Source: an uncultured Gemmatimonadota bacterium
Lineage (GTDB): Bacteria; Gemmatimonadota; Gemmatimonadetes; Gemmatimonadales; Gemmatimonadaceae
DNA length: 62,152 nucleotides
Direction of reading: 5' to 3'
NCBI GenBank assembly: GCA_903910555.1
Contig: CAIVZZ010000026.1
Location: forward strand, 1 to 62,152
The stretch's first letter is position 1. Every line of letters begins with the position of its first letter. Positions 14,127 through 17,658 of this stretch are shown here, one piece after another. A program made the position numbers and the translations under genes. The notes beneath the pieces were generated by a model. That model ran no database searches and was not told where the DNA came from. It worked only from the letters and a program-made list of their open reading frames with translations.

Positions 14127-14131
14127 CTTCT

Positions 14132-14172
14132 GCGGGGCAAGCGCTGGTGGCGCTTGCCCCGCATTTCGTTTC
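14132..14172 (+). terminator. Terminator after tRNA-Asn
   Basis: A near-perfect 14-bp stem (GCGGGGCAAGCGC with GCGCTTGCCCCGC, three-base loop) is followed by the T-rich ATTTCGTTTCTT. It lies 6 nt after the tRNA and also faces the convergent lipoprotein gene. Confidence 0.85.
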
Positions 14173-14179
14173 TTACGCG

Positions 14180-14692
14180 TTATTCGGCGACGGTGATGTA
14201 GATCGTTCCCCACGGAAAATAGATACCGTTGCCGAGCTGATCGTCGGCGGTGTAAACGCTGTTGATGCTACAGGTGGACGGCTTATATGTGATGGTGCCG
14301 CTCTGCGCCCAATGTACGCCAGCGGAATTGGCGCCAGGGCCAACCGTTGTGATCGGCGGATTCGATCCGCCTTGCTGGAACAGCGTGACCGTCGCACCAG
14401 AGTTGTTGTACCAGACGACGGTTTGACCCGCCGCGACCGACGCAGGATTCGGACTGTAGGTGGGGCACCTCAGCGTGTCGACCTGCGCACAGCCCGCGGG
14501 CGGGCAGCCAGCCACTCGTAGGAACGAAATCGTATCGAGTCGATAGATCACCGACGGGCCGATCGTTATCACGACGGACCCGGTGGGAGCTGAAGTGCCG
14601 TTCGATCCGGTCGAAGCCGTGGGCCCCGCGCCGCAGGCGCTCGCGGTCATCGCGGCCGCGGTGCCGGTTATCAGCAACATCCACCGGCGCAC
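14180..14692 (-). CDS. Putative lipoprotein with cupredoxin-like core
   Basis: About 170-aa exported protein. The chosen GTG start gives MRRWMLLITGTAAAMTASAC, a signal peptide ending in a lipobox (ASAC); the ATG at 14680 is an alternative. The mature part is Thr/Ser/Gly-rich and contains SVAAGQTVVWYNNSGATVTL and a C-terminal GTIYITV, a layout reminiscent of plastocyanin-like beta-sandwich domains (PxxVxAGxTVxWxN). Typical His and Cys copper ligands are not obvious, so metal binding is unlikely. Function unknown. Confidence 0.65.
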   Translation of the reverse strand: MRRWMLLITGTAAAMTASACGAGPTASTGSNGTSAPTGSVVITIGPSVIYRLDTISFLRVAGCPPAGCAQVDTLRCPTYSPNPASVAAGQTVVWYNNSGATVTLFQQGGSNPPITTVGPGANSAGVHWAQSGTITYKPSTCSINSVYTADDQLGNGIYFPWGTIYITVAE

Positions 14693-14960
14693 TCTGCGGA
14701 TAGCGACACACGCCGCTCCGGAGTGATGATCTCGTTGTGGGGTTGTCGGCCCTTCCATCGCTTGCGGACGAATTCGCATCTCATTGCGCTCCGTGAGAGA
14801 AAGAGGAGCAGACGCTATTCGGCCGCCGTGTCCCAGCTATGGGCGCCGCCGTGTCTCACCCGTGTCGCGTGCCGTTTCGGGTTGCCGCCGCGTTCCAGCG
14901 GGGACAAATTCGCCCGTTCCCGTACGAGAGCCATCGGTCCGCAGCAAGAGGTGCCAGAGG

Positions 14961-16958
14961 ATGAGGCCGGAACTTCGACTGCTCGGGACGCTCGACGTTC
15001 GCCTCGTGGACGTGGCTGCAAGTGACCGCGCGATGCGTCATCCAAAGCGCATCGCACTCCTCGCATATCTCGCCGTCGCGCGCCCGCGTGGCTTTCACCG
15101 TCGCGACGCGCTCATCGCGATGTTCTGGCCGGAACTCGCAACTGACGCCGCACGCGGCGCGCTCCGGACCGCCCTCACCCGCCTGCGTAAGGAGTTTGGC
15201 GCGGGCGCAATCACAAGCCGCGCCGATGAGATTCGCCTCGAGACTGACGCGATCTGGTGCGATACGACTGCGCTAGAGGAGGCGGTCGGTGCCGGGCGCG
15301 CGAACGAAATTGGCGATCTGTATCGCGGAGATCTTCTTGCCGCGCTGCACGTCGAAGGAATCGGCGAGGAGTTCGAAAGCTGGCTTTCAGCCGAACGCGT
15401 TCGCATTCGGGACTCCGCCGTTCAAGTGCTTTCTGCGCACGTGCGCAGTCTTGAGTCACGCGGGGATCGACGAGCGGCGGTTCCAATCGCGCAGCGCGCG
15501 TTTGAAATCGCACCGCACGACGAAACCGTCTCGAGGCAACTCATACGCCTTCTGGCTGCGGCCGGCGACCACGGCAAAGCCGCTCAGGTCTATCAAGTGA
15601 TGGCGCGTCGATTGAGTCTTGAGTTCGAGACCTCTCCTTCGCGCGAGACGCTGGAGCTGATGCAGTCATTGCGCGCGACGAGTCGCGAATACGAGGCCGC
15701 GGCTCCGTTGGTCGATTCACCGTCTGCCAGATTCGCAACCGAGGGGTCGCTGCCGCTAGCCGTTCGCGCGAACACTCAGTCAGGAGGCCCGCATCACGCA
15801 GCACGACGCGCCTTCTTGAAGCCCGCCCTCGCGGGCGTGGCGCTCATTCTGGTCGCGCTCTCTGTCGGTGCAAAGTTGCTGTATCCTGGACGACCGCCGG
15901 CAGCACGCTGGATCTCGCTCCCGGCGCCGATCGAGTCGAGACCTCCATCAAGGGATTTTGAATCTGCATTCCTCGACTCGACCGCAAATGCGCTGGTCGT
16001 GTTCGGCGGACTGACTTCACGCGGAGAAGGTTCCGACTCGAGCCCGATTCTCGGCGACATGTGGCGTCTCACGGGACTGCGGCGGGACGAGGCGCACCAC
16101 TGGCAGCGGGTGCAGCCTGCAGCCGGACCCTCTCCGGGGCGACGCTGGAACTCGCTCGCGACATACGATGCCGCAACTGATCGAGCACTGATTCACGGCG
16201 GAGCGATGGGTCATAGCTCCCCGTGCGCGAACGATACGTGGGTGCTCGATCATGCGTCTGGGATCGGCGCGACTCCACGCTGGAGAGCACCGGACATTAC
16301 CGGAACCTTACCGCCCCCACACGCCGAGACAAACGGATTCTACGACGGCCGCACCCGCAGTCTCGTCGTGCTCGGCGGCAACGACTGCGTCGCAACGTTT
16401 ACAAACGACGTTTGGGTTTTGTCGTTCGACGCCTCGTCCCTCCGCTCCGGCGTCTGGCACCGCCTATCACCGACCGGCTTCGACGGCTCGCCGGTTCGGC
16501 GTAACGCGGCCGCGGCCGCATACGACCCGAAGTTCAGGCGACTCTGGCTTGAGGGAGGTCACGACCGGAATCCATTGTCGGACTTGTGGCGGCTCGACGA
16601 TCCAGACGGTTCGGCCGGCCGCCCTGCGTGGCACCGCGTGCACTGTGGAGGAGAGGCGCCTGCGCTATATGGGCACCTCGCGGCGTACGACACGACCAGT
16701 GGCGCGCTCCTGCTTTTCGGAGGGATCGACGAAAACGGCGAAGCCCGCAATGATGTGTGGGTAGCGCGCAACCTCAATGACGACGGTCACGATTGCCGAT
16801 GGGAGCGACTTGGCGCGGCGGAGCATTCGCCTTTGCCTCGCGACACGCCGCGAGGGTTTGTGCTGCCATCAGGCGACGCGCTGATCGTCGTCGGCGGTTC
16901 CGTCGAAAACGTTGCCTTCCTCGACTTGTGGCGCCTCGATCACCCGCTGCACCGCTAG
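14961..16958 (+). CDS. Membrane-tethered BTAD (SARP-like) regulator with Kelch repeats
   Basis: 665-aa fusion. Residues about 1-95 form an OmpR/SARP-type winged helix (LRLLGTLDVRL, LLAYLAVARPRG, FWPELATDAARGALRTALTRLR). Residues about 100-245 form a BTAD helical domain (YRGDLLAALHVEG, IAQRAFEIAPHDETVSRQLIRLL). A single membrane helix (ALAGVALILVALSVGAKLL) lies near residue 290. The rest (about 330-660) contains repeated Kelch-like blocks (LVVFGGLTSRG, ALIHGGAMGH, LVVLGGNDC, LLLFGGIDENGE, LIVVGGSVEN). The topology predicts cytoplasmic DNA binding coupled to an external beta-propeller. The ATG at 14961 is chosen because the SARP domain starts there; the upstream extension has no domain. Confidence 0.85.
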   Translation: MRPELRLLGTLDVRLVDVAASDRAMRHPKRIALLAYLAVARPRGFHRRDALIAMFWPELATDAARGALRTALTRLRKEFGAGAITSRADEIRLETDAIWCDTTALEEAVGAGRANEIGDLYRGDLLAALHVEGIGEEFESWLSAERVRIRDSAVQVLSAHVRSLESRGDRRAAVPIAQRAFEIAPHDETVSRQLIRLLAAAGDHGKAAQVYQVMARRLSLEFETSPSRETLELMQSLRATSREYEAAAPLVDSPSARFATEGSLPLAVRANTQSGGPHHAARRAFLKPALAGVALILVALSVGAKLLYPGRPPAARWISLPAPIESRPPSRDFESAFLDSTANALVVFGGLTSRGEGSDSSPILGDMWRLTGLRRDEAHHWQRVQPAAGPSPGRRWNSLATYDAATDRALIHGGAMGHSSPCANDTWVLDHASGIGATPRWRAPDITGTLPPPHAETNGFYDGRTRSLVVLGGNDCVATFTNDVWVLSFDASSLRSGVWHRLSPTGFDGSPVRRNAAAAAYDPKFRRLWLEGGHDRNPLSDLWRLDDPDGSAGRPAWHRVHCGGEAPALYGHLAAYDTTSGALLLFGGIDENGEARNDVWVARNLNDDGHDCRWERLGAAEHSPLPRDTPRGFVLPSGDALIVVGGSVENVAFLDLWRLDHPLHR

Positions 16959-16965
16959 CGAACGC

Positions 16966-17250
16966 CTACGGCTTCTTCGTCGGCGCCGGCGTGGCCGTCT
17001 CCGCCTTCAGCGCGGCCTTGGTCTGCTTCTCGCCCTTGATCTGCTGCTTCAGCTTTTTGGCCGTCGCCGTATCGCCCTTCGCCTTGGCCGCCTTACGCGC
17101 AGCCTTGTTCGATTTGATCGTCTTCTTCACCGACTTGAGACTGTCATGCTGAGCGGTCGCCTTCTTCGTCGCGCCACTCCCCTGCGCGGCCAGGCTTGAA
17201 CTTCCCAGCGCAATCGCGGTGGCGAGCAGTGCAAGGTGAATCCGCTTCAT
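16966..17250 (-). CDS. Small secreted Lys/Ala-rich protein (paralogue 1)
   Basis: 94 aa with a clear signal peptide (MKRIHLALLATAIALGSSSLAAQG), then a highly basic helical segment rich in KSVKKTIKSNKAARKAAKAKGDTA-type sequence. AGGAG precedes the ATG. It shares its layout and the motif RKAAKAxGDTA with the gene at 17272-17595. It ends 7 bp from the convergent BTAD/Kelch gene. Function is unknown; a histone-H1-like charged periplasmic protein is one description. Confidence 0.7.
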   Translation of the reverse strand: MKRIHLALLATAIALGSSSLAAQGSGATKKATAQHDSLKSVKKTIKSNKAARKAAKAKGDTATAKKLKQQIKGEKQTKAALKAETATPAPTKKP

Positions 17251-17271: not shown

Positions 17272-17595
17272 TTACGGGTTCGGTTTACGCGGAGCTTTCC
17301 TCGGCGGCAGCTCTTTCCTGAGGCCGGCTGCCTGCATTCGGTTCGCCTTGAGGGCCTTGGAATCTGCCTTCATTCTCGCCGTATCGCCCGATGCCTTCGC
17401 GGCTTTTCGGTCGGCGGCCAACGACTTCATGTTCTGACGAACTGCCCTCAAACTGTCACGTGCCGGGCTCGCGTGCTTTGTTGCCGGCGTGGTCGTTGTC
17501 GGAGGCGTGGTCGTCGATTGAGCAGAAGCACTCGCGGCACCTACTACAGAAACAGTCAATGCCGCAAGAATAGTTGCAATTCGGATCGAGCGCAT
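17272..17595 (-). CDS. Small secreted Lys/Ala-rich protein (paralogue 2)
   Basis: 107 aa starting MRSIRIATILAALTVSVVGA with a signal peptide ending near ASAQS, a Thr/Pro linker, then DSLRAVRQNMKSLAADRKAAKASGDTARMKADSKA. The block DSL(K/R)xV(K/R)...RKAAKAxGDTA matches paralogue 1, so the pair arose by tandem duplication. AGGAG sits 5-9 nt before the ATG at 17595; the in-frame start at 17619 has no such support. Function unknown. Confidence 0.7.
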   Translation of the reverse strand: MRSIRIATILAALTVSVVGAASASAQSTTTPPTTTTPATKHASPARDSLRAVRQNMKSLAADRKAAKASGDTARMKADSKALKANRMQAAGLRKELPPRKAPRKPNP

Positions 17596-17658
17596 GGGAA
17601 CTCCTGAAAGGTTCACCAATCAGACGCTCGCAAGTTGACGAAGGTTAAGTGCTCCCGG

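What the first reader, a model, noticed from the sequence alone, without database searches (positions are those of the whole stretch)
14961..16958. One-protein signal system: cytoplasmic SARP/BTAD head, one TM helix, external Kelch propeller
SARP-type regulators are usually soluble. Here the DNA-binding part is joined through a single helix to a beta-propeller that would face the periplasm, giving a direct outside-to-DNA route without phosphotransfer, analogous to CadC or ToxR.
Basis: partly seen in the sequence, partly recalled or inferred. Interest (0 to 1): 0.52.

Follow-up and report, generated by a model that had tools for sequence, protein, structure and literature searches.

The report
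Membrane-tethered SARP regulator with Kelch sensor
This gene encodes a one-protein signalling device: a DNA-binding head of the kind known from antibiotic regulators, tied by one membrane helix to a propeller that should sit outside the cell membrane, and it lies beside a matching DNA-site array and, in most copies, a gene for a secreted lipoprotein.

Summary
ORF 14961-16958 has an AfsR/EmbR-type head (winged helix plus BTAD; model pLDDT 96.9, best PDB match AfsR), one hydrophobic helix at residues 288-304, and a six-GG Kelch propeller with four cysteines invariant in all seven relatives. Six full-length homologues exist (one a paralogue in the same genome): 6 of 179 genomes of the family.

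I add three things. (1) The base-contacting residues of AfsR are kept. (2) All seven loci carry CGT-core half-sites at offsets 0/23/34 bp; here CCGTGTC at 14826, 14849 and 14860, between the regulator and a divergent lipoprotein gene. Strong homologues of that lipoprotein lie only beside Kelch-SARP genes (3 of 3), and in one genome the array precedes the lipoprotein instead. (3) The build is not solitary: 67 of 81 other BTAD heads fetched have a helix in the same place, and their upstream regions are enriched for repeats at 11 bp, the published SARP spacing.

Best reading: a membrane-bound one-component receptor, working like ToxR/CadC but built on a SARP head, that controls itself and the neighbouring lipoprotein. 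Ligand, topology and sign of regulation are untested. New variant of a known kind.

The parts
14961..16958 (+). Kelch-SARP gene, 665 aa, ATG start
14961..15245 (+). OmpR/SARP-type winged-helix DNA-binding domain, residues 1-95
   Evidence: model pLDDT 96.9; AfsR/EmbR matches
15258..15695 (+). BTAD (TPR-like bacterial transcriptional activation domain), residues 100-245
   Evidence: Pfam PF03704 at 119-238, structure match to AfsR
15822..15872 (+). single predicted transmembrane helix, residues 288-304
   Evidence: hydropathy in 7 of 7 members
15906..16943 (+). six-GG Kelch propeller, residues 316-661; invariant cysteines 422, 476, 562, 612
   Evidence: Pfam, Foldseek, alignment
14826..14878 (+). 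candidate operator array: CCGTGTC at 14826, 14849, 14860 and CCGTTTC at 14872; the 0/23/34 spacing is shared with the homologous loci
14180..14779 (-). divergent secreted lipoprotein-like gene (likely starts nearer 14680-14692), candidate target and partner
   Evidence: homologues beside the Kelch-SARP genes of L060 and L062; start options; no Pfam match; my signal-peptide heuristic did not score it

Best explanation
A membrane-integrated one-component transcription regulator. The cytoplasmic SARP head (winged helix plus BTAD) binds a phased array of CGT-core half-sites in the intergenic region it shares with a secreted lipoprotein gene. A single helix carries the signal from a Kelch propeller outside the membrane, which senses an envelope cue or binds the lipoprotein itself. 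It most likely controls the lipoprotein gene and its own gene, without phosphotransfer. Shown by computation: domains, helix, conserved DNA-contact residues, conserved array, gene neighbourhood. Inferred: outside location of the propeller, that this head binds this array, which genes respond, and any ligand.
For: Head structure matches AfsR and EmbR over both domains. Contacts described for AfsR (PMC10936776, passages read) R87, T88, R92, R94 correspond to R69, T70, R74, R76, kept in 7, 6, 7 and 7 of 7. Half-sites at 0/23/34 bp in the seven loci: CGT at offset -23 in 6 of 7, a position not used to find the sites; 0 of 20000 Markov shuffles reach this, and 6 of 20000 for five less related loci, where it is 4 of 5. 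The 23-bp repeat in the window had been flagged before the array was known. A matrix from five loci found the L062 site blind, score 27.5; apart from the rejected terminator hit at window 14164 (19.4) the next best in 645 kb is 14.0. SCGTKTCNNNNSCGTKWC has two matches in the whole genome, both upstream of its two Kelch-SARP genes. The lipoprotein family has three strong matches in 179 genomes, each beside a Kelch-SARP gene.
Against: The window's array is a weaker match (matrix score 6.6) and lies 82 bp before the ATG, while in five loci the site ends 12 to 14 bp before the regulator's ATG. That position and orientation do not fit the AfsR activation geometry for either gene. In L061 and L063 the nearby exported proteins are of other families. 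The patterns were written from sites already seen, so they measure specificity only. K95 of AfsR is K, D or N here and Q48 is K. Charges flanking the helix are balanced.
Confidence: 0.72

Rival explanations
1. The protein is a SARP, but the propeller stays cytoplasmic and the helix is only a hydrophobic linker, so it is a soluble multidomain regulator like AfsR with a Kelch sensor in place of NOD-TPR.
For: Large soluble SARPs with C-terminal sensor domains are known (PMC10936776, passages). A minority of family heads lack a clear helix (14 of 81). The flanking charges do not decide topology.
Against: The helix is at the same place in 7 of 7 Kelch members and 67 of 81 others, median start residue 290-292, against 21 of 106 for a comparable stretch of background proteins. 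Four cysteines are invariant in the propeller. The neighbour genes encode exported proteins.
Confidence: 0.12
2. The array is the site of another regulator or an RNA/translation element that controls the Kelch-SARP gene; the SARP head acts elsewhere.
For: In five loci the array sits 12 to 14 bp before the start codon, where a translational element could lie.
Against: The 11-bp phasing is the published SARP operator rule (PMC10936776). In L062 the array precedes the lipoprotein, not the SARP. Upstream regions of 81 other SARP heads are enriched for the same phasing.
Confidence: 0.2
3. The propeller is an exported enzyme or binding module, for example for a sugar, and DNA binding is vestigial.
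For: Kelch propellers such as the sialic-acid mutarotase YjhT exist; 2uvk (YjhT) is a lower-ranked fold match.
Against: DNA-contact residues and the head fold are strongly conserved.
Confidence: 0.06

Closest known systems
AfsR and EmbR (SARP family)
   Same: Winged helix plus BTAD with the same fold over 230 residues; recognition-helix residues kept; direct repeats phased by 11 bp
   Different: AfsR has NOD and TPR domains, EmbR an FHA domain, with no membrane helix in the passages read; here a helix and a presumably exported Kelch propeller
ToxR/CadC membrane-integrated one-component receptors
   Same: N-terminal cytoplasmic winged helix, one helix, C-terminal extracytoplasmic sensor, no phosphoacceptor (definition in PMC5936718, passages)
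   Different: Head is SARP type with BTAD; sensor is a Kelch propeller; profile match to the ToxR winged helix is only E 0.02
Kelch propellers such as LZTR1, KLHDC2 and bacterial YjhT/NanM
   Same: Propeller fold
   Different: Fused to a DNA-binding head through a membrane helix

Membership tests
SARP family | N-terminal OmpR-type winged helix | tested here: met
SARP family | BTAD following it | tested here: met
   53.8 bits against a cut-off of 22.1
SARP family | DNA-contact residues of the recognition helix | tested here: met
   R87, T88, R92, R94 equivalents kept; K95 and Q48 vary
SARP family | Direct repeats 11 or 22 bp apart near target promoters | tested here: met
   pair at 11 bp plus a third half-site 23 bp upstream, seven loci; sequence only, no binding shown
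SARP family | Transcription activation through sigma region 4 and alpha CTD | not testable with these tools
   needs biochemistry
ToxR/CadC-like one-component receptors | Bitopic: a single membrane helix between head and sensor | tested here: met
   hydropathy, 7 of 7; prediction only
ToxR/CadC-like one-component receptors | C-terminal domain is periplasmic | tested here: inconclusive
   four invariant cysteines; flanking charges balanced
ToxR/CadC-like one-component receptors | No phosphoacceptor domain | tested here: met
   no such Pfam match at E up to 1
ToxR/CadC-like one-component receptors | Winged helix of the CadC superfamily | tested here: inconclusive
   ToxR at E 0.022, behind EmbR and AfsR

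The most novel reading that the evidence does not exclude
Membrane-tethered SARPs are a large, so far undescribed class of one-component receptors in this bacterial family: one head, swappable external sensors (mostly TPR, here Kelch), each reading an 11-bp-phased operator beside its own gene and often beside a divergent gene for an exported protein, so that the sensor, its DNA code and its surface target can be read together from sequence.
Probability: 0.6. Interest if true: 0.72.

Novelty: new variant of a known kind. Interest (0 to 1): 0.58.

Why it matters
Membrane-integrated one-component regulators are known mainly with CadC/ToxR-type heads. A SARP-headed class, with AfsR structures in hand for the head and a predicted operator for many loci, would give a directly testable system for how a single helix passes a signal from outside to DNA, and would extend SARPs from antibiotic control to envelope sensing. 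The Kelch member comes with a candidate target that is itself secreted, so feedback between the sensor and its own product can be tested.

Tried and rejected
Matrix hit at window 14164 (score 19.4): rejected as an operator, because it lies in the T-tract of a hairpin after the tRNA-like gene and over the stop of the lipoprotein gene. RecA matches to residues 65-113: too weak, and inside the recognition-helix/BTAD junction. A wider set of related loci from genome contigs gave one Anaerolineae locus matching only residues 48-243. Distant lipoprotein homologues in two other genomes of the genus have no BTAD gene in the stretch fetched. The NCBIfam lipoprotein-tail hit on the window lipoprotein (E 0.0028, below cut-off) was not used. 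The exported-neighbour count is only moderately enriched: the divergent neighbour scored as exported in 17 of 30 and 15 of 26 heads, against 99 of 293 and 45 of 147 other genes; the classifier is a home-made heuristic that misses the window's own lipoprotein. The 81 comparison heads are 80 places taken from the ranked list, not at random (that list is itself cut), plus the third BTAD gene of the same genome. Six homology-selected Kelch loci were left out of that comparison and treated apart.

Papers: PMC10936776, PMC5936718, PMC9214523 and PMC1262709 were read as passages only; other papers as search listings. No description of a membrane-bound BTAD protein, or of BTAD or SARP together with the word Gemmatimonad, was found in searches; subscription journals are mostly not covered. 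The phylum was not identified by any search.

Full report
What is there. The ORF at 14961-16958 encodes 665 aa. Pfam places BTAD at residues 119-238 and Kelch repeats from 319 on. Seven full-length proteins of this build were aligned: the window's, a paralogue on contig 5 of the same genome, and one in each of five other genomes. Six of 179 genomes of the family hold it. In a draw of 395 genomes from the phylum, 5 had a match at E up to 1e-60, all five of the same family. Identity to the window protein is 34 to 41 %.

Head. With 46 heads aligned, AlphaFold2 gives mean pLDDT 96.9. Foldseek ranks AfsR, then EmbR, ahead of all others, and VIA-align gives AfsR Z 16.6 over 230 residues and EmbR 15.3, with unrelated helical-repeat proteins from 13.6 down. 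A profile of the heads finds EmbR at E 2.7e-12 and AfsR at 6.9e-11 across both domains (designed TPR proteins score higher through the repeat part alone). The winged helix alone still finds EmbR (5.9e-4), AfsR (4.5e-3), BasR and, weakly, ToxR (0.022). AfsR residues that contact DNA were taken from passages of PMC10936776. Their equivalents R69, T70, R74 and R76 are kept in 7, 6, 7 and 7 of 7 Kelch members; S91 is S or T in 6 of 7; K95 is D in 5; Q48 is K in 7. In the 46 heads taken together T70 and R74 vary widely, as expected if they set specificity.

Helix and propeller. The best 19-residue hydropathy window lies between BTAD and propeller in all seven members, although the linker is not conserved. 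The propeller has six GG motifs in the window protein (sequence) and matches Kelch domains of known structure. Cysteines 422, 476, 562 and 612 are invariant, which suits an oxidising compartment but does not prove it; I could not measure their distances because no coordinates are released. The full-length model has a low-confidence head and linker.

A family of tethered SARPs. From the list I fetched 40 further loci; with the third BTAD gene of the same genome these give 41 non-Kelch heads. Thirty-five of 41 have a helix (Kyte-Doolittle at least 1.6) after BTAD. In a second set of 40 the number is 32. A comparable stretch of background proteins passes in 21 of 106. The parts beyond the helix match TPR families in most cases: 28 of 41 match TPR_19 alone.

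Operators. The published SARP rule is direct repeats 11 or 22 bp apart (PMC10936776). In the 220 bp before 41 non-Kelch heads, an 8-base repeat with at least 7 matches at period 11 occurs in 17, against a mean of 4.1 over the 24 other periods from 9 to 33, and in 28 of 322 upstream regions of other genes (Fisher one-sided 3.7e-7). Period 22 was not raised in this first set (5 of 41). In the held-out 40 heads, period 11 gives 16 and period 22 gives 12; no other of the 25 periods exceeds 7. Background at period 11 there is 15 of 101 (p 0.0017).

For the Kelch members an 11-bp pair, in the form GCGTKTC-N4-SCGTTAC, was seen upstream of five genes. A matrix from these five found, blind, a site in L062 with score 27.5; a second hit in the window at 14164 (19.4) I reject as a terminator, and the next best in 645 kb is 14.0. 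The L062 site lies upstream of the lipoprotein gene of that locus, not of the SARP gene. The pattern GCGTDTCYTNNSCGTTAC occurs once in each of the six Kelch-SARP genomes and in none of the other 173; since it was written from those sites, only the absence elsewhere is informative. Lining up the seven loci shows a third half-site 23 bp before the pair in 6 of 7, with 0 of 20000 shuffles as good. In the window the copies are CCGTGTC at 14826, 14849 and 14860, and CCGTTTC at 14872. Its pair, with the contig-5 paralogue's, is all that SCGTKTCNNNNSCGTKWC finds in the 3.2-Mb genome, with one control hit.

Partner. Beside the window gene, divergently, lies a small secreted lipoprotein-like gene (14180-14779). 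Homologues lie beside the paralogue and beside the G116 gene. A profile of these three finds only two further, weak matches in 179 genomes, without a BTAD gene in the 6 to 10 kb fetched. Two loci (L064, L065) have instead a divergent lipoprotein with Ig-like repeats (my reading of its sequence) and a Kelch propeller of its own (Kelch/mutarotase matches). L061 and L063 share another exported domain. Each Kelch-SARP locus thus has exported proteins nearby, of three kinds.

Mechanism. I commit to a membrane-bound one-component regulator whose head binds the array side by side, as AfsR does, and controls the shared intergenic region. Shown: domains, residues, array, neighbours. Inferred: topology, binding, sign, ligand. 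In five loci the site ends 12 to 14 bp before the regulator's ATG, which suits self-repression better than AfsR-type activation, and its orientation does not match AfsR geometry for the divergent gene; the sign of regulation is therefore open.

Known or new. It works like ToxR/CadC (definition from passages of PMC5936718) and its head is a SARP by every feature I could test. I found no paper on membrane-bound BTAD proteins in the searches listed under Tried and rejected. I rate it a new variant of a known kind.

Noticed in passing
upstream regions of BTAD genes, e.g. L097, L102, L104, L106: Several TPR-type heads carry CCGTGATC repeats at 11 bp; heads with R at position 69 tend to have CGT-core repeats, heads with S there CTC- or CGATC-type repeats, which looks like a readable specificity code.
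   Followed up: partly
L064:6663-8654 and L065:6204-8231: The gene divergent from two Kelch-SARP genes encodes a lipoprotein with Ig-like repeats and its own Kelch propeller, so sensor and neighbour share a fold.
   Followed up: partly
L066:7060-9981 (contig 6 of the same genome) and L066:10089-11297: A third BTAD gene with a helix and a 673-aa C-terminal part without any Pfam match, divergent from a secreted Ig-like protein.
   Followed up: no
window 14131-14185: A strong hairpin and T-tract (terminator-like) that by chance resembles the Kelch-SARP operator and overlaps the stop of the lipoprotein gene.
   Followed up: yes
window 16966-17250 and 17272-17619: Two adjacent small secreted proteins rich in Lys and Ala with a similar repeat-like core, downstream of and antisense to the Kelch-SARP gene.
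   Followed up: no
L062:11629-11700: In G116 the array is followed after about 12 bp by an ATG of a short ORF, as if a regulator gene had once started there and moved to the other side of the lipoprotein.
   Followed up: no
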